This document shows positions 9,030-28,942 of a stretch of 28,942 nt of DNA, piece by piece. The stretch's first letter is position 1. The number at the start of each line of letters is the position of its first letter. The stretch covers positions 1-28,942 of the forward strand of contig JAJZQR010000031.1 in the NCBI GenBank assembly GCA_021806765.1. The letters are read 5' to 3'. This stretch comes from Chloroflexota bacterium (lineage in GTDB: Bacteria > Chloroflexota > UBA6077). The notes under the pieces are model-generated. The model was not told the origin of the DNA. It made no database searches and saw nothing but the letters and a program-made list of their open reading frames with translations. A program made the translations under genes and the position numbers.

Positions 9030-9588
9030 GAGGGGCATAACAATCCGGGGCGCCCCGGTTTCCATATTGTCCGTGCGGGGCGGGTTCTCAGAACCCGCCC
9101 CTACTTGATATGGGCGGCAGGGGACAAGGGCGCATCGCGGTAATGGGTGATCCACTTGCCTGTAGTAGGCGGGGTTGTCTCAGCCCCGCCATCACCACGG
9201 GCGGCTTAGGGACAAGCCGCCCTACTGTAAGCTGGACTGACAGGCCGGTTTCACACTTCTCCGCGATGCGTCGGGACAAGCCCCTGCCTTTGTGCCGCCA
9301 CGGTTCACGAGGGCGGGTAGATAGAGTTACAGTCTGATGCCAACGTCACCCCCAGCCTCTCCTTCGTCACCCCCGCGAAGGCGGGGGTCCAGGCATCCCA
9401 TCTCCTCGTGAGGCCACTCCTCCACATCGCCGTGGGCCTCTGGATGCCCGATCAGGTCGGGCATGACGATCAAGGTAGGCTGCCTTCTCCAGACTGTTAC
9501 GCTGTCTATGAACCGCGCCTTGTGCCCGCGCACCCGGTACAGATCTTGCCCGAACCGGTGAATCCGCTTGTGGCAAGGAGGCCCGAAG
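9030..9588. repeat. Repeat-filled gap between E2 and the BON gene
   Basis: No believable gene in 559 bases. Three compact palindromes: 9077-9101 (GGGGCGGGTTC arms), 9168-9190 (GGCGGGGTT arms) and 9199-9222 (GGGCGGCTT arms). The first and last are followed by CTAC and the second preceded by GTAG. Then comes a larger inverted-repeat element at 9365-9468: it opens CGTCACCCCCGCGAAGGCGG, closes with GGTCGGGCATGACG, and each end is itself a small hairpin. The same element design recurs at 24517-24588. Confidence 0.8.
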
Positions 9589-10428
9589 ATGGATCCATCG
9601 GAAGAACATGCCAAGGATAAGCTGGCCCAGGAGCCCTTCCCTCCCACTGACACTACTTTGAAAGAGCCCGGGCTGCGGGCCTCGCTGGACGACGCCCGCC
9701 TGGCCAACCGCCAGGTAGGAAGCAGCCTCCGCGATCAGGAGATCGCCGGCCATGCCCTTTTTGCCCTGTCCGAGGATGGTCGCATCGACCTGGGAGACGG
9801 GCTGAATAACCGAATCGCGGTCAAGATCGAGGGCCGCATCGCCACCCTCACAGGCGTGGTGGACTCCGCCGAGGAGCGGATGGTCGCTGAGGAGGTGGTG
9901 GAAGCGATTCCGGGCGTTGCCCTGGTGCAGAACGCCCTGACCGTCTCGACGGACAGCTACCTGGACGACGAGGACCTCAGCCGCCGGGTACGACAGAGAC
10001 TCGACGACTCCGGCTTCGCCGGGGTGGGCTCGAGGGTCTCCCACGGCATCGCGCGACTGGTGGGAACCGTGGAGAGACTGGCCGACGAGGACCTGGCCGT
10101 CCGGACGGCGGCCGGCGTCAAGGGGCTACGGGACGTGCTCAGCAACCTCAAGGTGCGCACGCCGGAGTATACCGACGATATCGATCTAAAGAGCCTGGCC
10201 AACCAGGCACTGGCGATCAACGATCTGGTGATGCTGGACCGCCGGGTCCGCGTCAGCAACGGAGTCGTCGAGATCGCGGGTAGGGTCAAGTCGCTGGCAG
10301 ATGTCCTCCGAATTCGCCGGGTTCTCAGCGAGATCGCTGGAGTCAGGGGCATCAAGACCCACATCCAGGTGGACCACACCCTCTTCCGCGATTTCCAGGC
10401 TCGGACCCATCTCTCCACCGGGAGGTAA
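9589..10428 (+). CDS. Protein with three BON domains
   Basis: A 279-residue protein from ATG 9589, with AAGGAGG seven bases upstream. After a polar N-terminal ~55 residues it carries three BON (OsmY/nodulation) modules at about 70-120, 130-185 and 198-268. Each shows the pattern of a helix, a strand with V/I-x-x-G-x-V/A-x-L-x-G-x-V (KIEGRIATLTGVVDS; GIARLVGTVER; VSNGVVEIAGRVKS), and a second helix ending in G-V/L-x-x-V. There is no signal peptide, so it is probably cytoplasmic, unlike OsmY. BON proteins bind phospholipid or other macromolecules and are often induced by stress. Its stop is 2 bases before the next gene. Confidence 0.88.
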   Translation: MDPSEEHAKDKLAQEPFPPTDTTLKEPGLRASLDDARLANRQVGSSLRDQEIAGHALFALSEDGRIDLGDGLNNRIAVKIEGRIATLTGVVDSAEERMVAEEVVEAIPGVALVQNALTVSTDSYLDDEDLSRRVRQRLDDSGFAGVGSRVSHGIARLVGTVERLADEDLAVRTAAGVKGLRDVLSNLKVRTPEYTDDIDLKSLANQALAINDLVMLDRRVRVSNGVVEIAGRVKSLADVLRIRRVLSEIAGVRGIKTHIQVDHTLFRDFQARTHLSTGR

Positions 10429-10430
10429 CC

Positions 10431-11012
10431 ATGCGCAGAGTACGCACCCCTGTAGTCAAGCCGGGGACCCGGCCGATCCTGCCGGGTCGGGTGGAGCCCA
10501 CCTGGCGCCAGTCGCAGTGGCCGATAGAGGCGGACAGCATAAGGGGGAACTACCCCCGCAAGGATTTCGAGGGGCCTGAGGCCGTCCAGGGCCAGGTCAT
10601 CTGTCCCGTCTGCCACGCCATCTCCGACGGCAAACACTGGCTCCTGGACGAGGAGGAATACCGGAGGCTCCGCCAGGACCCCAACGTGAGGGTGGAACTG
10701 TGCCCAGCCGACGAGCGGATCCGCCGCCAGATGTTCGACGGCGAGGTGATGCTGCGTGGCGAGTGGCTGCAGACTCACAAGGAGGAGGTGCTGAACTGGG
10801 TGCGCAACGAGGAGAAGCGCGCCCGCAGCACCAACCCCATGGCGCGCCTGGCGACGGTCCAGGAGAGGGAGGGCGGCATCTACATCTTGACCACCAGCCA
10901 GGCCCTAGCACGGCGGATAGGGAGTGGGCTCAAGAGCGCCTTCAAGGGCCGCCTCACCATCCAGCGATTGCCCTACGAGACCTTTACCCGGGTGCGATGG
11001 GCTCGCGATTGA
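10431..11012 (+). CDS. BCAM0308/NMD3-like putative zinc-binding protein
   Basis: A 193-residue protein from ATG 10431 whose GGAGGTAA ribosome binding site overlaps the end of the BON gene. A basic N-terminus (~50 residues) leads to C-P-V-C at 58-61, then 'DGKHWLLDEEEYRRL', a second knuckle LCPADER at 90-96, and 'EVLNWVRNEEKRARSTNPMA' followed by 'GGIYILTTSQALARRIG'. This layout is what I recall for the bacterial BCAM0308 family, which resembles the archaeal NMD3 region that contacts the large ribosomal subunit. The second zinc knuckle has only one Cys (C91; Asp94 where a Cys is expected). It sits between BON and HPF genes, so a stress or ribosome-related role is plausible. The assignment is from memory of the pattern. 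Confidence 0.6.
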   Translation: MRRVRTPVVKPGTRPILPGRVEPTWRQSQWPIEADSIRGNYPRKDFEGPEAVQGQVICPVCHAISDGKHWLLDEEEYRRLRQDPNVRVELCPADERIRRQMFDGEVMLRGEWLQTHKEEVLNWVRNEEKRARSTNPMARLATVQEREGGIYILTTSQALARRIGSGLKSAFKGRLTIQRLPYETFTRVRWARD

Positions 11013-11140: not shown

Positions 11141-11602
11141 ATGTACTACGAGATCCGGACCAAAGGGCTGGAACTCACCGAAGCGGTGCAGGCCCTGGTT
11201 CACGAGAAGTTGGGGTTGCTGGAGCACCTGATGCGGGACTACCCCTCGGATTCCGTCATGGCCTCGGTCAGGCTGCACCGGCTGCCGGTGACCGATGAGA
11301 TGTACGACCTCAGGGTGGTGCTGGAACTTCCCGGCGACCGGTTGTTCGCGACAGAAAAGTCCGAGACGCTGGATAACGGCCTGGTCAACGTGACCGCCGA
11401 ACTGGAGAAGCAGCTCAAGCACCTGCTGGCCAACAAGCGGAACGAGACCCACTGGAAACGGATCAGCCATACCAGTGAGACGGTCCGCCGGACCGTTCCC
11501 GTCAACGAGGATGAGCTGGCGGACATCCAGGAGGAGGTCCAGTACCGGACCGAGCAGCAAAGCCACCACGAAGGGCCGGCGGAGAAGAGGAAGGCCGCCT
11601 GA
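11141..11602 (+). CDS. Ribosome hibernation-promoting factor / S30AE family
   Basis: A 153-residue protein from ATG 11141, preceded by GGGGGT. It starts MYYEIRTKGLELTEAVQALV, the first strand and helix of the S30AE fold. It continues with a central strand pair (VRLHRLPVTDEMYDLRVVLE), 'LFATEKSETLDNGLVNVTAE' and the basic helix LEKQLKHLLANKRNETHWKR. These proteins sit in the decoding region of the 30S subunit and stop translation in resting cells. The ~50-residue C-terminal tail is acidic and lacks the usual long-HPF dimerisation domain, so this is a short type. Its neighbours are BON and NMD3-like genes upstream and an unusual rRNA operon 1.4 kb downstream. Confidence 0.88.
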   Translation: MYYEIRTKGLELTEAVQALVHEKLGLLEHLMRDYPSDSVMASVRLHRLPVTDEMYDLRVVLELPGDRLFATEKSETLDNGLVNVTAELEKQLKHLLANKRNETHWKRISHTSETVRRTVPVNEDELADIQEEVQYRTEQQSHHEGPAEKRKAA

Positions 11603-11762: not shown

Positions 11763-12929
11763 ATGACCGGGTTCAAGGGACGCGCCGACCGCCGGAGGGT
11801 GGTCGAGCTGCTAAGCCAGCTGGTAGCCATCGATAGCGTCAACCCCTCGGTGGAGGGCAGCGGCCGGGGCGAGGGCGAACTCGCCCGCCATCTGGCCGGC
11901 TTCCTACGAGGACTCGGCCTCGAGGTATCGATGCAGGAAGCCCTGCCGGGGCGCCCGAACGTCCTGGCCCGCTGGAGAGGCCCGAACTCCCATCGGACCA
12001 TACTCTTCCAGAGCCACCTGGACACGGTCACCGCCTCCAACATGACCGACGGCTTGCGCCCACGGTTGGAGGGTGGACGGCTCCATGGTCGAGGGGCCTG
12101 CGACGTCAAGGGGGCCACGGCGGCCTTCCTCCATTCCCTGGAACTGCTGGCACCTCATCGAGAACAACTCCCCGCCGATCTTCTCTACCTGGGAACCGTC
12201 GATGAGGAGTTGGGATACACGGGTGCCAGGGTATTCGTGGAGCAGGGCGGCATGGCCGACGCCGCCGTGGTGTTCGAGCCCACGGGGCTTCAGCCGGTCG
12301 TCGCCCACAAGGGGGCGCTCAGGGTCCGCATCGCCACTCACGGCCGGAGTGCGCACACGGCACGTCCGGAACTGGGCGACAACGCCATCTATCAGATGGT
12401 GGAGGTGATCCGAGCCCTGCGGGAGCAGGTAGAGACGAAGTTGCCGCAACGCCGCCATCCGCTGTGCGGCTCCGCCACCCTCAGTGTCAGCCGCATCTTC
12501 GGAGGGCTGCAGATCAACATCGTGCCCCCTGACTGTTTCGCGGACATAGATTGGCGAACCCTACCGGACGAGGATCCCATTGGAGAGGTGCTGGAGAGGC
12601 TCCGCAGCTTCCTGGACCAACTGAATCGCGATCAGCCATGGGTTCACGTCGAGGTGAATCAGATGCTGCGCTCCTACAGAGGGTTGGACACGCCGCAGGA
12701 CGCGCCCATCGCCAGAGTGGCGCTGGAGGCCTGCCGGGCCATCACGGGTCGTGCGGAGCCAGCGGGAGCGCCCTACGGCACCGACGCCAGCGAGATTGCG
12801 CCGGCCATCCCCTGCGTGGTGCTGGGACCCGGCGACATCGCCCAGGCCCACACTGAGGACGAGTGGGTGGACGTCGAGCAGGTGGCCCAGGCCGCCGAGG
12901 TCTACGCGGAGCTGGCGCTGCGCTTCTGA
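11763..12929 (+). CDS. M20 family zinc metallopeptidase/deacylase (ArgE/DapE-like)
   Basis: A 388-residue cytoplasmic hydrolase. ATG 11763 is chosen because GAGGTG lies six bases before it; GTG 11754 is part of that site. The two-metal M20 ligands are all visible: His in LFQSHLDTV, the bridging Asp in GRGACDVKGA, the catalytic Glu and metal Glu in GTVDEELG, an acidic ligand in VVFEPTG, and the C-terminal His in AQAHTEDEWV. A dimerisation domain (~residues 180-290, 'HKGALRVRIATHGRSAHTAR' onward) is inserted as usual. The motif set fits acetylornithine deacetylase, succinyl-diaminopimelate desuccinylase or related acyl-amino-acid hydrolases; the substrate cannot be settled. A strong terminator follows 10 bases after the stop. 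Confidence 0.92.
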   Translation: MTGFKGRADRRRVVELLSQLVAIDSVNPSVEGSGRGEGELARHLAGFLRGLGLEVSMQEALPGRPNVLARWRGPNSHRTILFQSHLDTVTASNMTDGLRPRLEGGRLHGRGACDVKGATAAFLHSLELLAPHREQLPADLLYLGTVDEELGYTGARVFVEQGGMADAAVVFEPTGLQPVVAHKGALRVRIATHGRSAHTARPELGDNAIYQMVEVIRALREQVETKLPQRRHPLCGSATLSVSRIFGGLQINIVPPDCFADIDWRTLPDEDPIGEVLERLRSFLDQLNRDQPWVHVEVNQMLRSYRGLDTPQDAPIARVALEACRAITGRAEPAGAPYGTDASEIAPAIPCVVLGPGDIAQAHTEDEWVDVEQVAQAAEVYAELALRF

Positions 12930-12938
12930 ACCGACGTC

Positions 12939-12972
12939 AAAGGGGGTTCAGTCCGCGGACTGAGCCCCCTTT
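12939..12972. terminator. Bidirectional intrinsic terminator between M20 gene and rRNA operon
   Basis: A 17-bp stem (AAAGGGGGTTCAGTCCG against CGGACTGAGCCCCCTTT, with one G-U-type mismatch), flanked by T4 on the plus strand and a T-run on the minus strand. It can end both the plus-strand M20 transcript and the minus-strand rRNA transcript. It follows the 23S processing stem at once, leaving no room for a 5S gene. Confidence 0.9.
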
Positions 12973-12973
12973 T

Positions 12974-13004
12974 GCACCTTTACAATCAGATAACTTCCAT
13001 TCCG
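12974..13004 (-). other. 3' arm of the pre-23S rRNA processing stem
   Basis: 31 bases (GCACCTTTACAATCAGATAA onward) are the reverse complement, with two differences, of 16085-16115 just upstream of the 23S 5' end. Such long flanking stems are the RNase III processing sites of precursor 23S rRNA. Here the stem is intact. Confidence 0.88.
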
Positions 13005-13014
13005 TCGAGCACCA

Positions 13015-16069
<3,055 letters not shown>

Positions 16070-16084
16070 CTGATGACTCGTGAG

Positions 16085-16115
16085 CGGAATGGAAGCTATC
16101 TGGTTGTAAAGGTGC
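16085..16115 (-). other. 5' arm of the pre-23S rRNA processing stem
   Basis: Partner of 12974-13004; 31 bases with one mismatch and one G-U pair. It lies about 15 bases upstream of the 23S 5' end. Confidence 0.88.
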
Positions 16116-16210
16116 GTCTTGCGCGACCCCTGGCCCCTGCCTCCTGTCTGGGTTCGGACCAGACCGGCCGCCGAGTGTATCCGGCAGTCGCAAGAGGTGG
16201 ACCAGCCAAC

Positions 16211-16248
16211 CGACAATGGTGAGAGGGCGGGGCGCCTCGAGAGAGGCG
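16211..16248 (-). other. 3' arm of the pre-16S rRNA processing stem
   Basis: This stretch contains TGGTGAGAGGGCG and GAGAGGCG, which are repeated in inverted orientation at 17851-17890 upstream of the 16S 5' end. Together they form the precursor 16S stem. Confidence 0.82.
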
Positions 16249-16304
16249 TGAGAGAACCACTGCAGATGTCCGGCAACACGAACGGGACTTGGCCCGTCGT
16301 GCCG

Positions 16305-17848
16305 GAAAGGCACTTGCGAGCCACACCTTCCGGTACGGCTACATTGCTACGCCAGTGTCCCTGGTCGCCAGCCCCGCCCTGGTCCAACCGTCCGCACGGT
16401 CCTCTCGGACAGTGGGGGCTAGCTGGGCTTCGGACGGGATGAACTCCCGGGACACGGCGGGCTAACTGTGCGAGACCTAGGAACACATTCACCGCCGTGT
16501 GGCTGACCGGCGGTTACTAGCGGCTCCACGTTCATGCAGGCGAGTTGCAGCCTGCAATCCCAACTAAGACCGGCTTTTTGGGTTTAGCTCCGCCTCGCGG
16601 CTTGGCATCCCTTTGTACCGGCCATTGTAGCACGTGTGAGGCCCAGGGCATGAGGGCCATGCCGACTGGTCGTCGTCCCCTCCTTCCTCCGAGTTGCCCG
16701 GCGGTCCCGCTAGAGGGTCCCCCCTTGGGGGGGACAACTAACAGCGAGGGTTTCGCTCGTTAGGGGGCTGAGCCCTACGTCTCACGACACGAGCTGACGG
16801 CAGCCATTCAGCCCCTGTGCCGGTGCCCGCCTTTACGGGTCGTTCCCGTTTCCGGGTTCTACTGCCGGCATCCAGCCTTGGTAAGGTTCTACGGTCACGT
16901 TCGGATTAATCCACGTGCTCCGCCGCTGGTGTAGGTCTTCGTCAATTCCTTTGGGTTTCAGCCTTGCGGCCGTAGTTCCCCAGGCGGGGCACTTATCGCG
17001 TTAGCTGCGACCCAGAGGGGGTCAATACCCTCCGGATCTAGTGCCCATCGTTTACTGCGTGGACTAACGGGGTTTCCTAATCCCGCTCGCTCCCCACGCC
17101 TTCGCGCCTCAGCGTCAGGAACAGTCTAGGAGGCTGCCTTCGCTATCGGGGTTCTTCCCGGTATCATCGCATTTCACCGCTACTCCGGGAGTTCCACCTC
17201 CTCCGGCTGCCCTCTCAGCGATACGGTATCGGCCGCCCTTCCCCGGTTGAGCCGGGGGCTTTCACGGCCGACGGGTACCACCGCCTACGCGCTCTTTACG
17301 CCCAATGAATCCGGACAACGCTCGCCCCCCACGTATTACCGCGAATGCTGACACGTAGTTGTTCGGGGCTTATTCGCCGGGTACCGTCAAGCCCCAGTGA
17401 GGCCTTCTTCCCCGGCAAAAGGGGTTTACGACCCGAAGGCCTTCCTCCCCCACGCGGCGTCGCTGCGTCAGGCTTTCGCCCATTGCGCAAGATCCCCTGC
17501 TGCTGCCTCCCGTAGGAGTCGGGGCCATGTCTCAGTCCCCGTCTGGCTGGCCGTCCTCCCAGACCAGCTACCCGTCATCGGCTTGGTGGGCCGTAACCCC
17601 ACCAACTACCTGATAGGGCGCGGGTCCCTCCCCAAACGCCTTCTGGGCTTTAGCCGCCGGGCCTAGTACCCGGAGGCCACATGGGGGATTTACCGGCCTT
17701 TCGGCCGAATGTCCCCCGCTTGGGGGCAGGTTACCCACGTGTTACTCAAACGTCTGCCACTGGCCGGCTTTCGCCAAGCCCGTCCGACTTGCATGCATGA
17801 GGCACGCCGCCAGCGTTCGTCCTGGGCCAGGATCGAACCCATCAGAAT
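16305..17848 (-). rRNA. 16S rRNA gene, structurally intact but lacking canonical decoding-site bases and anti-SD
   Basis: About 1544 nt on the minus strand, the normal length. Clear landmarks: GATCCTGGCCCAGG, GAACGCTGGCGGCGTGC, ACTCCTACGGGAGGCAGCAG, AAAGGAATTGACG, GTCAGCTCGTGTCGTGAG, CACGTGCTACAATGG and GTAGCCGTACCGGAAGG. By hand alignment the following near-universal sites are changed: the 530 loop (GTGTCAGCATTCGCGGTAA), an extra base in the 790 loop, G926 to A, G966/C967 to C/G, C1054 to A, 1397-1400 to GUUA, U1406 to C, A1408 to G, A1492/A1493 to C/U, G1504 to U. The 3' tail reads CGCAAGTGCCTTTC in place of GGATCACCTCCTTA. Many partner bases changed with them, keeping helices paired. Ends are estimated. 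Confidence 0.9.
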
Positions 17849-17850
17849 GA

Positions 17851-17890
17851 CGCCTCTCACCGAGATGCCACGCCCTCTCACCACTGTTCG
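17851..17890 (-). other. 5' arm of the pre-16S rRNA processing stem
   Basis: On the transcript strand it reads GTGGTGAGAGGGCGTGGC...GTGAGAGGCG and can pair with 16211-16248 across the whole 16S gene. It ends a few bases before the estimated 16S 5' end. Confidence 0.82.
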
Positions 17891-18221
17891 GCTGTTAAGG
17901 TTCGCGCCGGTCGCTCTCGCGACCCTCACGTCTTATGTCAAGAGCACATCCCGTGCCACCGGTTCCCTCTGCCGGCTCCCCCTTTCGGGGGATCTCGCCA
18001 CCCCCTTTCGGGGGCTCCTAACCACCGACCCGGTGGCGGGAATAACCACTGGGTCTCGCACATCACGTGCCACGACGGAGACCCGATGGCCGTACGAGAC
18101 TGTCCCGAAGCGGATCGAGACTCCACAGTGGCATGGTCGTTGCTCAGCAACTCCCAAGCCATCCGCGCCCAACTCGAACTGCGAGCTGACGGTTGATGGC
18201 TGATAGCTCGGAGCTTTGAAA
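17891..18221 (-). promoter_or_regulatory. rRNA leader/promoter region shared with a divergent BON gene
   Basis: About 330 bases without a gene. On the rRNA strand there is a TTGACA (17941-17936), a candidate -35, but no good -10 at the expected spacing. Downstream of it GGTCGC-GAGA-GCGACC (17909-17924) can form a tetraloop hairpin in the leader. Upstream are two identical hairpins of CCCCC-TTTC-GGGGG (17978-17991 and 18001-18014; GAAA tetraloops on the rRNA strand). At 18183-18210, next to the divergent BON gene, is another word-repeat hairpin (cgagct...agctcg). The promoter assignment is tentative; the hairpins are seen directly. Confidence 0.5.
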
Positions 18222-18917
18222 ATGCCCATGGCTGAAGGGTTTACGGACGACAGGATAGCCGGCGAGGTCCGAGAGGTTCTGGATCACGACTCACGCCTCC
18301 GGCCGGAGGGGATATCAATCCAGGTCCAGCGAGGCGTCGTCACCCTCACCGGGACGGTCGGCCGCCACCTGGACAAGATGGTGGCCGCCGAGGACACCTG
18401 GCGAATCAAGGGTGTGGTCGAGGTGAAGAACGGCCTCCAGGTGAAGCCCGACATCCTCCGCCCGTCCGAGCAGATCGCCGCGGACGTGGCGGCGGCTCTG
18501 ACCGCCAACCCGCGGGTGGACGATCGCAGCGTGGTGGTCAACGTGGCGGAGGGGATCGTACGACTGTCGGGAGCCGTCTCCAACGAGGCAGAGCGCAGGG
18601 CCGCCGAGGAGGAAGCGTGGCACACCGACGGGGTGGTGGACGTCTCCAACGAACTCACCATCTCCGTCGACCGGCGGCGTCCCGATCACGAGATCGAGCA
18701 GGACGTCAGGGCGGCCCTGGACAGCGACGCCCGCATATCCGACCCCACGCAGGTCAGCGCCAAGTCGGTGGCGGGCACGGTTCGACTGCAGGGCACCGTG
18801 GCCAGCGCCGAGGAGCGGCAGGCGGCGGAGAGAGACGCCTGGTACACGGCCGGCGTCGTCTACGTGGAGAACCTGCTGACCATCGCCGGACGGCGGCAGC
18901 GGCCGGCAGCGGCGTAA
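18222..18917 (+). CDS. Protein with three BON domains (second copy in window)
   Basis: A 231-residue protein. ATG 18222 is preferred over TTG 18216 and ATG 18228 because GGAG lies eight bases before it. It is almost entirely three BON modules at about 8-75, 85-150 and 160-225. Each contains the strand V-x-L-x-G-x-V (RGVVTLTGTVGR; EGIVRLSGAVSN; AGTVRLQGTVAS), then an E-x-x-A-A-E/R-x-x-A-W helix and G-V-V-x-V-x-N/E-x-L. The Trp in each repeat helix (TW, AW, AW) is well kept, suggesting recent internal duplication. It is unlike the three-BON protein at 9.6 kb, which has a long N-terminus. No signal peptide. It is transcribed divergently from the rRNA operon. Confidence 0.88.
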   Translation: MPMAEGFTDDRIAGEVREVLDHDSRLRPEGISIQVQRGVVTLTGTVGRHLDKMVAAEDTWRIKGVVEVKNGLQVKPDILRPSEQIAADVAAALTANPRVDDRSVVVNVAEGIVRLSGAVSNEAERRAAEEEAWHTDGVVDVSNELTISVDRRRPDHEIEQDVRAALDSDARISDPTQVSAKSVAGTVRLQGTVASAEERQAAERDAWYTAGVVYVENLLTIAGRRQRPAAA

Positions 18918-27338: not shown

Positions 27339-28600
27339 GAGTCCCACACCACGCGGCCGTCCTTCAGGACGGTGCGGACCAGGTTCCGGCCGAACCAGTA
27401 GGCCAGGTGGACGTGGGAGGGCGCCTCCAGGATCACCACGTCGGCCCGCTTCCCGGGCTCCAGACTGCCGACCTCATCGCCCAGCCCCACGGCGCAGGCC
27501 GCGTTCAACGTCCCCGCCACGATGGCCTCCGCGGGGGTGAGCAGCCGTCGGAGGCAGGCCAGACTCAGGATCAGGGGCATCGACAGGATCGGACAGCTAC
27601 CGGGGTTGAAGTCGGTAGCCAGGGCCACCGGCACGCCCGCCTCGATCATCCGCCGGGCCGGCGCCCAGGTGGTCTCCATCAGCATCAGCGCCGCCCCCGG
27701 CAGCAGCACCGCGATGGTCCCCGCCCCCGCCAGGGCCGCGATGTCCTCCTCCGTCGCGTGCTCCAGGTGGTCGGCAGAGACAGCACCCAACTCCGCCGCC
27801 AGCCTGGCTCCCCCCAGGGAGGACTTCTGCTCCGCGTGGATCTTGGGGACGAGGCCGTGGGCGAGCCCGGCCTCCAGCACCCGCCGGCTCTGCTCCACCG
27901 AGAAGGCCCCTCGCTCGCAGAAGACGTCGCAGTAGCGGGCCAGTCCGCCGGCGGCGACCAGGGGGATCATCTCCCGGACCACCAGATCCACGTACTCCTC
28001 GGGCTTCTCCCGGTACTCGGGCGGGACTGCGTGAGCCCCGAGGAAGGTGCCCACCACCCGCTGCGGCCCCTGCCGGCCCAAGGCGGCCGCGACCCTCAGC
28101 ATCTTCAATTCGCCCTCGGTGGAGAGACCGTAGCCGCTCTTGATCTCCACCGTGGTGGTGCCGTGGCGCAGCATCTCCCGCAGATAGCCCCGCGCCCGCT
28201 CCTCCAACTGCTCCGCAGAGGCAGCCCGCGTCGCCCGCACGGTGCTCAGGATCCCGCCACCGGCGGCCAGGATCGCCAGGTAGTCGGCCCCCTCCAGGCG
28301 ACGGGCGAACTCGTCGGCCCGGTCCCCCGCGAAGACGGCGTGGGTGTGGGGGTCCACGAAGCCGGGGAGCACCGTCCGGCCTGAGGCGTCGATCACCCGA
28401 GCACCGGGCGCCAGATCCACAGAGTCGCGCACCCGGGCGGTGGCGTCCACCATCAGGATCCGGCCGTCCTCCCCCGCAGCCAGGGCGCCGTCGTGGATCA
28501 GGCCCAACTCGCCCTGGGCGGCTCCTTTCCGCGGACCGGCCGGCCCGGCCAGGGTGACCAGCTCCGCAGCATGTTCTACTAGGAGGATTGCCCGGCTCAT
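27335..28600 (-). CDS. hutI: Imidazolonepropionase
   Basis: A 421-residue amidohydrolase from ATG 28600 (GAGGGTGAG just upstream; an upstream in-frame Met lies in repeat DNA). It hydrolyses 4-imidazolone-5-propionate to N-formimino-L-glutamate, third step of histidine degradation, in the cytoplasm. Marks: VLPGFVDPHTHAVFAGDRAD with the metal HTH pair and AGDR loop, 'GTTTVEIKSGYGLSTEGELK', IHAEQ with metal/substrate His, SADHLEH, and ALATDFNPGSCP with the metal Asp. Its product is the substrate of the FTCD encoded next on the strand. hutH and hutU are not in the window. The stop codon is supplied by the following repeat. Confidence 0.95.
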   Translation of the reverse strand: MSRAILLVEHAAELVTLAGPAGPRKGAAQGELGLIHDGALAAGEDGRILMVDATARVRDSVDLAPGARVIDASGRTVLPGFVDPHTHAVFAGDRADEFARRLEGADYLAILAAGGGILSTVRATRAASAEQLEERARGYLREMLRHGTTTVEIKSGYGLSTEGELKMLRVAAALGRQGPQRVVGTFLGAHAVPPEYREKPEEYVDLVVREMIPLVAAGGLARYCDVFCERGAFSVEQSRRVLEAGLAHGLVPKIHAEQKSSLGGARLAAELGAVSADHLEHATEEDIAALAGAGTIAVLLPGAALMLMETTWAPARRMIEAGVPVALATDFNPGSCPILSMPLILSLACLRRLLTPAEAIVAGTLNAACAVGLGDEVGSLEPGKRADVVILEAPSHVHLAYWFGRNLVRTVLKDGRVVWDS

Positions 28601-28762
28601 CTCACCCTCACCCCGTGACGCGACCTGGCGCAGCGTCTCGCCTCTCCCAGAGGAAGAGGGAGAGGGAAAGCACTCAGCACTCAGCACTCAGCACCCAGAA
28701 CCCAGAACTCAGAACCCAGAACTCAGAACTCAGAACCCAGAACCCAGAACTCAGAACCCAGC
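28601..28762. repeat. Repeat tract upstream of hutI with tandem 'actcag/acccag' units
   Basis: 28640-28667 has a CCTCTCCCAGAGGAAGAGGG-type palindromic word. From about 28669 to 28762 there is a tandem run of seven-base-like units (cactcag, then cccagaa/ctcagaa), all on one strand. This is the single-armed form of the word repeats that make hairpins elsewhere in the window. It lies between livF and hutI. Confidence 0.85.
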
Positions 28763-28768
28763 GCCCCC

Positions 28769-28942
28769 TCAGGCTCCCATCCCGAGGTAGGCTCGGCGCA
28801 CCTCGGGGTTGCCGGCCAGTTCGGCGGCCGGGGCGTGGAAGGTGAGGAGACCAGCCTCCAGGACGTAGCCGCGATCCGCCACCTGCAGCGCCTTTCGAGC
28901 GTTCTGCTCCACCAGCAGGATGGTCACCCCCTGCCGCTTCAA
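28769..28942 (-). CDS. livF: Branched-chain amino acid ABC transporter ATPase LivF, C-terminal part
   Basis: The last 57 codons of a minus-strand gene entering from the right edge. It reads 'LKRQGVTILLVEQNARKALQ', then VADRGYVLEAG and ends NPEVRRAYLGMGA. The VTILLVEQN segment is the strand preceding the H/Q-loop of LivF-type ATPases, and the E-V-R-x-A-Y-L-G ending is the LivF signature tail. LivF pairs with LivG to power high-affinity uptake of leucine-type or other amino acids. Being upstream of hutI on the same strand, it may belong to an amino-acid uptake and breakdown cluster. Confidence 0.92.
   Translation of the reverse strand: MKRQGVTILLVEQNARKALQVADRGYVLEAGLLTFHAPAAELAGNPEVRRAYLGMGA

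What the first reader, a model, noticed from the sequence alone, without database searches (positions are those of the whole stretch)
16350..16473. 16S decoding site (h44 A-site) rebuilt: A1492/A1493 and A1408 are gone
The transcript 3' strand reads GGGACACTGGCGTAGCAATG where GGGGTGAAGTCGTAACAAGG is expected, so A1492/A1493 become C/U (16355-16354). The 5' strand reads CACAGTTAGCCCGCCGTGTC for CACACACCGCCCGTCACACC, so 1397-1400 become GUUA and A1408 becomes G. The new sequences pair with each other (GCC/GGC, one bulged U, GUGUCCC/GGGACAC), including U1409-A1491 and C1406-G1495. The open A-site loop is thus replaced by a nearly continuous helix. A1492/A1493 monitor codon-anticodon pairing in known ribosomes, so this rRNA should not decode in the normal way, yet the helix is maintained. 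Numbering is from hand alignment to E. coli.
Basis: partly seen in the sequence, partly recalled or inferred. Interest (0 to 1): 0.95.

Follow-up and report, generated by a model that had tools for sequence, protein, structure and literature searches.

The report
A second, non-reading ribosome RNA set
A little-known group of Chloroflexota bacteria carries a deviant pair of ribosomal RNA genes, found in two relatives' genome bins alongside a normal pair, whose fold is conserved while its code-reading and bond-forming sites are rewritten, so it likely builds a ribosome-like particle that would not translate in the normal way.

Summary
A covariance-model alignment of the window's 16S shows no register shift: C1492, U1493, G1408, G1397-U-U-A1400, and a nearly continuous h44 helix with one bulged U. 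It is not an isolated oddity. The adjoining 23S is rewritten too (P-loop, PTC 2452/2453, H69). The same kind of 16S occurs in five of 29 genomes held of the class-level group of Chloroflexota bacterium UBA6077 (three full-length, two fragments); two of these bins also hold a full-length canonical 16S. The window and the deviant relatives form one clade in 16S and 23S trees (100% bootstrap). Base pairing is kept by compensatory change, so this is not decay. But sites that touch tRNA, mRNA or factors (list recalled) vary among three deviant copies (16 of 61 in 16S, 26 of 97 in 23S) and almost not among three canonical copies (2 of 61, 2 of 100). The anti-Shine-Dalgarno is absent. HPF, BCAM0308/NMD3-like and BON genes adjoin the operon. 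Most likely it makes a conserved ribosome-like particle that does not decode normally, perhaps for hibernation or stress. Expression and function are untested.

The parts
16306..17848 (-). Divergent 16S rRNA gene
   Evidence: RF00177, 1245.8 bits, model 1-1533; 67% identical to E. coli rrsB; 89 of 789 canonical-invariant columns changed
13013..16069 (-). Divergent 23S rRNA gene
   Evidence: RF02541, 2238.6 bits, model 1-2925; 110 of 1174 canonical-invariant columns changed
16451..16470 (-). h44 5' strand of the decoding site: 1397-1400 GUUA, C1406, G1408
   Evidence: sequence; CM alignment
16342..16361 (-). h44 3' strand of the decoding site: C1492, U1493, G1495, G1500, U1504
   Evidence: sequence; CM alignment
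16306..16322 (-). 16S 3' end without the anti-Shine-Dalgarno GGATCACCTCC
17336..17354 (-). 530 loop: U518, U524, U525 in place of C, G, C
16885..16945 (-). 926 and 966 P-site regions (G926A, G966C, C967G)
13992..14010 (-). 23S H69 loop, A1913C and neighbours
13657..13669 (-). 23S P-loop, G2251-G2253 to UUU
13454..13472 (-). 23S peptidyl-transferase strand, U2449C, C2452A, A2453G (A2451 kept)
13352..13364 (-). 23S A-loop, one base shorter, U2555A (G2553 kept)
17850..17894 (-). 5' arm of the pre-16S processing stem (predicted)
   Evidence: 37 WC + 4 GU pairs with 16207-16249; score 82 against at most 55 in 60 shuffles; coordinates
16207..16249 (-). 3' arm of the pre-16S processing stem (predicted)
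16085..16115 (-). 5' arm of the pre-23S processing stem (predicted), containing a boxA-like ACCTTTACA
   Evidence: 29 WC + 1 GU pairs; score 68 against at most 45 in 60 shuffles; coordinates
12974..13004 (-). 3' arm of the pre-23S processing stem (predicted)
17893..17901 (-). boxA-like element before the 16S
   Evidence: similar element in 10 of 10 16S and 23S leaders examined, canonical ones included; regex written after seeing them
11141..11602 (+). HPF-like ribosome hibernation factor (S30AE)
   Evidence: PF02482, 34 bits, cut-off 23.7; below the TIGR00741 cut-off
10431..11012 (+). BCAM0308-family protein with an NMD3-family domain
   Evidence: NF040826, 111.9 bits, cut-off 100; PF04981 E 7.8e-07
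9568..10428 (+). BON-domain protein
   Evidence: PF04972
18216..18917 (+). second BON-domain protein, divergent from the 16S
   Evidence: PF04972

Best explanation
The window holds one member of a conserved family of divergent 16S-23S rRNA operons in Chloroflexota, which likely assembles into a ribosome-like particle that would not decode mRNA in the normal way. Shown: both rRNAs match the full bacterial models, and the 16S keeps its pairs through compensatory change. The window operon has long leader-trailer stems around both rRNAs. The anti-Shine-Dalgarno is absent. Decoding, P-site and peptidyl-transferase contacts are rewritten, and those sites vary within the family. In two bins the family occurs together with full-length canonical rRNA. 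HPF, BCAM0308/NMD3-like and BON genes adjoin the operon. Inferred: the family arose once, long ago. The A-site switch is closed by pairing (G1408-C1492 with bulged U1493 in the window; A1408-U1493 in relatives; 1402-1500 becomes C-G or U-G), so monitoring of the codon-anticodon helix would fail. The particle likely shares the cell's ribosomal proteins, since each genome with deviant 16S has one S12 gene. The neighbouring HPF likely binds it, in a stress or dormancy role such as a permanently idle ribosome that stores ribosomal proteins or factors.
For: Fold kept: 359 of 391 Rfam pairs are standard in the window, 335-340 of 381-382 in three relatives, 336-353 of 365-384 in 11 full-length canonical 16S. 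From C_G003 to the window 46 of 54 two-sided pair changes keep pairing (null mean 8.0, max 16 of 300). Among the three deviant relatives 18 of 19, 10 of 13 and 21 of 21 do (null max 8, 6, 10). Functional constraint lost: recalled tRNA/mRNA/factor sites vary in 16 of 61 (16S) and 26 of 97 (23S) among three deviant copies, against 2 of 61 and 2 of 100 among three canonical copies, though the deviant copies vary less overall (19% against 25% and 35%). In the window such sites are changed at 19 of 55 invariant columns in 16S (others 61 of 725) and 26 of 91 in 23S (others 84 of 1083). Ancestry: window and relatives form a clade, bootstrap 100, in 16S, 23S and combined trees; at invariant columns changed in the window and in all three relatives, the window's base recurs in at least one relative in 19 of 29 (16S) and 27 of 38 (23S). 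Coexistence: G002 and G003 each hold a canonical and a deviant full-length 16S; G008 holds a deviant and a canonical-like fragment. Linkage: BON-BCAM0308 directly upstream of the deviant 16S on 4 of 5 relative contigs, HPF next in 3 of these 4. All four genomes with a deviant 16S in the CM search have a BCAM0308-family match; the four with only a canonical one have none.
Against: No RNA, reads or protein data. The functional-site list is from memory, and the two sets of three copies are not from the same three genomes. The deviant copies may be young relative to their hosts (transfer). Many changes are not shared: at invariant columns, all three relatives changed with the window canonical in 26 (16S) and 34 (23S), the window alone changed in 41 and 45. 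Key residues stay: A2451 and G2553 in all four, the sarcin-ricin loop in the window, A1492 and A1408 in the relatives, G2251/G2252 in G002. In the short-oligo folding only one of three relatives (G003) shows the closed A1408-U1493 form as its best structure. Stems of the G003 and G004 copies do not exceed shuffles. Five of the eight BCAM0308 matches are below that family's curated cut-off. G003 has the gene module on another contig, and UBA6077, the syntenic relative, has the module without adjacent rRNA. Coexistence rests on metagenome bins.
Confidence: 0.55

Rival explanations
1. A specialised translating ribosome: the operon makes a working ribosome with a rebuilt decoding and peptidyl-transferase centre, used under stress, perhaps tolerant of ribosome-targeting drugs or toxins, initiating without Shine-Dalgarno pairing on leaderless mRNA.
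For: Both rRNAs are kept, the 16S with full pairing; A2451 and G2553 are kept in all four, and the window keeps the sarcin-ricin loop. Several changed positions (1408, 2058, 2059, 2452) are drug-contact sites by recall. C2452A and A2453G are shared by all four.
Against: P-loop, sarcin-ricin loop, 966, 1503 and 1913 differ among the copies themselves, which suggests lost constraint rather than a new fixed function. A-to-G changes at 1492/1493 have been reported dominant lethal (PMC5270523, passage). No S12 paralogue.
Confidence: 0.25
2. The rRNA is the only rRNA of a fast-evolving lineage and does all its translation.
For: No canonical rRNA lies on the window contig, and in G004 only the deviant 16S and 23S were found.
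Against: G002 and G003 bins hold both kinds; syntenic UBA6077 has a canonical 23S, only 71.5% identical to the window's, while its PDH E1 proteins are 81-83% identical. Bases that canonical rRNAs share at the functional centres are missing.
Confidence: 0.08
3. A decaying relic of an rRNA operon.
For: Functional sites have lost constraint; G029 keeps only a short 23S remnant beside the gene module, so loss may happen.
Against: Compensatory pairing; identity among the deviant copies within the canonical range for 16S and at its top for 23S; strong processing stems in the window and G002.
Confidence: 0.08
4. Chimeric assembly, sequencing error or contamination.
Against: Deviant 16S in five relatives' genomes besides the window, with conserved neighbours in four and shared derived bases; the window's flank is syntenic with UBA6077.
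Confidence: 0.04

Closest known systems
Divergent rRNA operons with conditional use (Haloarcula, Vibrio vulnificus rrnI, Streptomyces coelicolor, Plasmodium)
   Same: Two kinds of rRNA operon in one genome (PMC9586635, passages)
   Different: Haloarcula hispanica copies differ by 5.4% (PMC5368182, abstract in a search listing). Here deviant and canonical 16S of the same bin differ by about 25-26% (G002, G003) and bases that are universal in canonical rRNAs are replaced.
A-site mutants (1408, 1492, 1493)
   Same: Pairing of the A-site loop and loss of A1492/A1493 (PMC6983231, abstract and passages; PMC5270523, one passage)
   Different: Those are laboratory or resistance changes at one or two positions, some lethal; here the change is natural, kept in a clade and joined by many others.
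Ribosome hibernation by HPF/YfiA
   Same: An S30AE protein adjoins the operon
   Different: Known hibernation uses ordinary ribosomes (recalled); here a dedicated rRNA pair would be involved.
lxa locus of Burkholderia cenocepacia
   Same: A gene of the family that NCBI names lxa_BCAM0308 beside BON, Hsp20 and HPF genes; lxa is induced by low oxygen (PMC9733578, passages)
   Different: No lxa-locus DNA was examined, so whether any rRNA adjoins it was not tested.

Membership tests
Bacterial SSU rRNA (RF00177) | Score above gathering over the full model | tested here: met
   1245.8 bits, model 1-1533
Bacterial LSU rRNA (RF02541) | Score above gathering over the full model | tested here: met
   2238.6 bits, model 1-2925
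Decoding-competent 16S rRNA | A1492 and A1493 | tested here: not met
   C and U in the window; A and U in three relatives
Decoding-competent 16S rRNA | Anti-Shine-Dalgarno CCUCC at the 3' end | tested here: not met
   absent in the window and the three relatives with a 3' end
Decoding-competent 16S rRNA | h45 with GGAA loop | tested here: met
   kept in all four
Peptidyl-transferase-competent 23S rRNA | G2251/G2252, C2452, U2585, A2602 | tested here: not met
   window UU, A, C, G; A2451 and G2553 kept
rRNA pseudogene | Loss of pairing constraint | tested here: not met
   compensatory changes far above null
HPF/YfiA (S30AE) | PF02482 above gathering | tested here: met
   34 bits, cut-off 23.7
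HPF/YfiA (S30AE) | TIGR00741 equivalog cut-off | tested here: not met
   27.9 bits, cut-off 40.9
BCAM0308 family (NF040826) | Curated cut-off | tested here: met
   window protein 111.9 bits, cut-off 100; among relatives 3 of 8 matches pass it
NMD3 family (PF04981) | Pfam gathering score | tested here: met
   29.3 bits, cut-off 24.9
NMD3 family (PF04981) | NMD3 fold | tested here: inconclusive
   AlphaFold2 pLDDT 68; Nmd3 at Foldseek rank 18, E 0.063; common ferredoxin-like matches lead
Ribosome active in translation | Presence in polysomes | not testable with these tools
   no expression or protein data

The most novel reading that the evidence does not exclude
A lineage of bacteria keeps two kinds of ribosome RNA: one that translates, and a second, about a quarter diverged, that has given up decoding and peptide-bond chemistry but is kept by selection as a whole two-subunit particle with its own hibernation-type partners: a non-translating 'para-ribosome'.
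Probability: 0.45. Interest if true: 0.98.

Novelty: categorically new. Interest (0 to 1): 0.93.

Why it matters
The bases of the decoding site and peptidyl-transferase centre are treated as nearly invariant in life. A natural rRNA pair that keeps the whole fold but has lost constraint at those bases would be a ribosome used for something else, or a ribosome that decodes by other contacts. Either makes it testable which parts of the ribosome are needed for what. Primer-based 16S surveys would likely miss these genes, since regions used for common primers (515, 926, 1392, 1492; recalled, primers not tested here) are changed, and rRNA-based trees could be misled by them.

Tried and rejected
Exact pattern of the window's h44 (two arms, gap 88-118): 0 in viral contigs and 0 in genome contigs; relatives were reached instead through the neighbouring BCAM0308 gene. 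A looser h44/h45 signature (A1500G type): 3 of 400 Chloroflexota genomes, all three already found. Dedicated S12 paralogue: none, one match in each of the five genomes with deviant 16S. 5S or tRNA in the operon: none found in 12500-18800 at Rfam gathering or E up to 5, none by ARAGORN there. NMD3 fold of BCAM0308: not settled (no PDB sequence match at E up to 0.1). Duplexfold of whole leaders was uninformative and was replaced by local stem scoring. Papers on a natural rRNA paralogue with changed decoding bases: none seen in the listings of searches (top rows only; the library lacks most subscription journals and all preprints). Rows dropped: the truncated Geobacillus 23S from then on; partial 16S copies (G012, G020, G005) from the trees and the pair comparisons; G008 and G029 fragments were used only for presence and linkage.

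Full report
What is there. The window (no whole genome held) carries a 16S (17848-16306, minus strand, RF00177 1245.8 bits) and a 23S (16069-13013, RF02541 2238.6 bits), both over the full model. No 5S or tRNA was found between or near them. They are 67% and 66% identical to E. coli rrsB and rrlB.

The finding. By pairing, 1406-1495 becomes C-G, 1402-1500 C-G, and G1408 pairs with C1492 leaving U1493 bulged. So the A-site loop is predicted to be closed.

It goes beyond h44. At 789 columns invariant in 13 canonical 16S (two partial) the window deviates at 89; full-length canonical sequences left out in turn deviate at 1-32 of about 800. In 23S the window deviates at 110 of 1174 columns invariant in 12 canonical copies, canonical ones left out in turn at 11-80. 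The changes include the 530 loop, 926, 966/967, 1054, 1196, H69, the P-loop (GGG to UUU at 2251-2253), C2452A, A2453G, U2585C and A2602G; A2451, G2553 and the sarcin-ricin tetraloop are kept. The anti-Shine-Dalgarno is absent.

Relatives. An exact two-arm h44 pattern found nothing in two collections. A neighbouring gene, of the BCAM0308 family, led to Chloroflexota bacterium UBA6077, whose locus is syntenic with the window: Hsp20, a small ORF, PDH E1 alpha and beta, E2, BON, BCAM0308 and HPF, at 56-83% protein identity, but without rRNA in the 20.6 kb fetched. UBA6077 is named among the basal Dehalococcoidia lineages (PMC10608941, one passage). Of 29 genomes held in its class, 8 gave a 16S match. 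G002 and G003 each gave two: canonical (1464.5 and 1466.7 bits) and deviant (1178.6 and 1193.5). G004 gave a deviant one, G005 a partial deviant one, G006 and G028 a canonical one, G012 and G020 partial canonical ones. A fragment at the end of G008:C139 is 83% identical to the G002 deviant 16S and 71% to a canonical one over the same stretch, and G008 has a canonical-like fragment elsewhere (74% to the deviant query). The three full-length deviant 16S of relatives are 84-87% identical to each other and 70.5-74.9% to the four full-length canonical copies of the class; the window is 73-75% to the deviant and 73-77% to those canonical copies. The four full-length deviant 16S, the window included, share U1493, G1500 and U1399 and lack the anti-Shine-Dalgarno; a CM alignment of the G004 copy agrees. 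A loose signature of this type is in 3 of 400 Chloroflexota genomes: G002, G003, G004.

One family. In maximum-likelihood trees of 16S, 23S and both combined, the window and the deviant copies form a clade with 100% ultrafast bootstrap beside canonical Chloroflexota. Long-branch attraction cannot be excluded by trees alone. At invariant columns changed in the window and in all three relatives, the window's base recurs in at least one relative in 19 of 29 cases in 16S and 27 of 38 in 23S. Many changes are private: all three relatives changed with the window canonical in 26 and 34, the window alone changed in 41 and 45.

Not decay. With 391 base pairs taken from the Rfam structure, 46 of 54 two-sided changes between C_G003 and the window keep pairing (null mean 8.0, max 16 in 300 trials). 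Among three deviant relatives 18 of 19, 10 of 13 and 21 of 21 do. Only the 16S was tested so. The window's pre-16S and pre-23S stems score 82 and 68 against at most 55 and 45 in 60 shuffles. The G002 deviant stems and the canonical G002 stems also exceed shuffles; the four stems of the G003 and G004 copies do not. A boxA-like CACCTTACCAA or near variant precedes each 16S and 23S examined, canonical or deviant (10 of 10; pattern written after seeing them).

Not ordinary translation. I listed sites that contact tRNA, mRNA or factors (from memory of ribosome structures). Among three canonical copies (G002, G003, G006) 2 of 61 such 16S sites and 2 of 100 23S sites vary, although 24.8% and 34.7% of all sites do. 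Among three deviant copies (G002, G003, G004) 16 of 61 and 26 of 97 vary, although only 19.4% and 19.3% of all sites do. For canonical copies these sites are strongly depleted of change (p 6e-06 and 2e-16); for deviant ones they are not (p 0.18 and 0.07, towards excess). The P-loop is UUU, AGU, GUU and GGU in the window, G004, G003 and G002, and the sarcin-ricin tetraloop GAGA of the window is GGAA, GCAA and GGAA in these three, still GNRA. So the fold stays under selection while the sites needed for translation do not. This is the main reason to prefer a non-translating particle over a specialised ribosome; it is an inference.

Neighbours. Divergently from the deviant 16S lie BON and BCAM0308 genes in G002, G004, G005 and G008, followed by an S30AE (HPF) gene in G002, G005 and G008. 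In G003 the three genes lie on another, 5.3-kb contig. In the window they lie beyond the 23S end, past an M20 peptidase gene, and a second BON gene faces the 16S. In G029 the same kinds of genes adjoin a 23S remnant made of its two ends only. BCAM0308 matches are in 8 of 29 genomes, 3 of them over the curated cut-off: the four with a deviant 16S, G008, G029, UBA6077 and G009. The four genomes with only canonical 16S lack it (4 of 4 against 0 of 4; one-sided chance 0.014). In G002, G003 and G008 the linked HPF is the only S30AE protein found. The window's BCAM0308 protein passes Pfam's NMD3 model, but its predicted fold was not decisive. Each genome with deviant 16S has one S12 match, so ribosomal proteins are probably shared.

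Mechanism. A-to-G changes at 1492 and 1493 are reported to be dominant lethal (PMC5270523, passage), and in the lethal A1408U mutant a Watson-Crick A1492-U1408 pair is proposed to hold the switch 'off', while A1408G alone is tolerated (PMC6983231, abstract and passages). The window (G1408-C1492) and the relatives (A1408-U1493) can close the same loop by different pairs; in short-oligo folding the window and G003 show it as the best structure, G004 and G002 do not. I therefore read this rRNA as an idle or stress particle, likely bound by the adjoining HPF. Binding, expression and role are untested.

Limits. No reads, RNA or protein data. Coexistence with canonical rRNA rests on metagenome bins and could not be tested for the window's own organism. 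The searched paper library is partial, and only listings were seen for the novelty searches; they showed no description of such an rRNA.

Noticed in passing
L062 (G029:C288) 10282-10570: A 23S remnant of about 290 bases: the first ~85 bases joined to the 3' part, beside HPF-BCAM0308-BON genes; a lost deviant operon or an assembly shortcut.
   Followed up: partly
G002:C233, G010:C37/C51, G015:C187 (L043, L044, L049, L057): 23S pieces matched in separate blocks, some with long extra stretches, as if interrupted by introns or insertions.
   Followed up: no
L037 (G003:C100): A second canonical-scoring 23S in bin G003 besides the one at C20: another operon or bin contamination.
   Followed up: no
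L019 (G002:C42 17765-18322): The HPF-like protein next to the deviant operon carries a C-terminal part that looks helix-hairpin-helix-like rather than like the usual dimerisation domain (impression, not searched).
   Followed up: no
window 28588-28790: Tandem repeat of a short unit, visible in ORF translations.
   Followed up: no
L002 20237-20307: Group II intron match near the UBA6077 locus.
   Followed up: no
L018 10611-16012: The G002 deviant 16S and 23S are long (1761 and 3403 bases) with insertions and a divergent GTPase-centre region.
   Followed up: no
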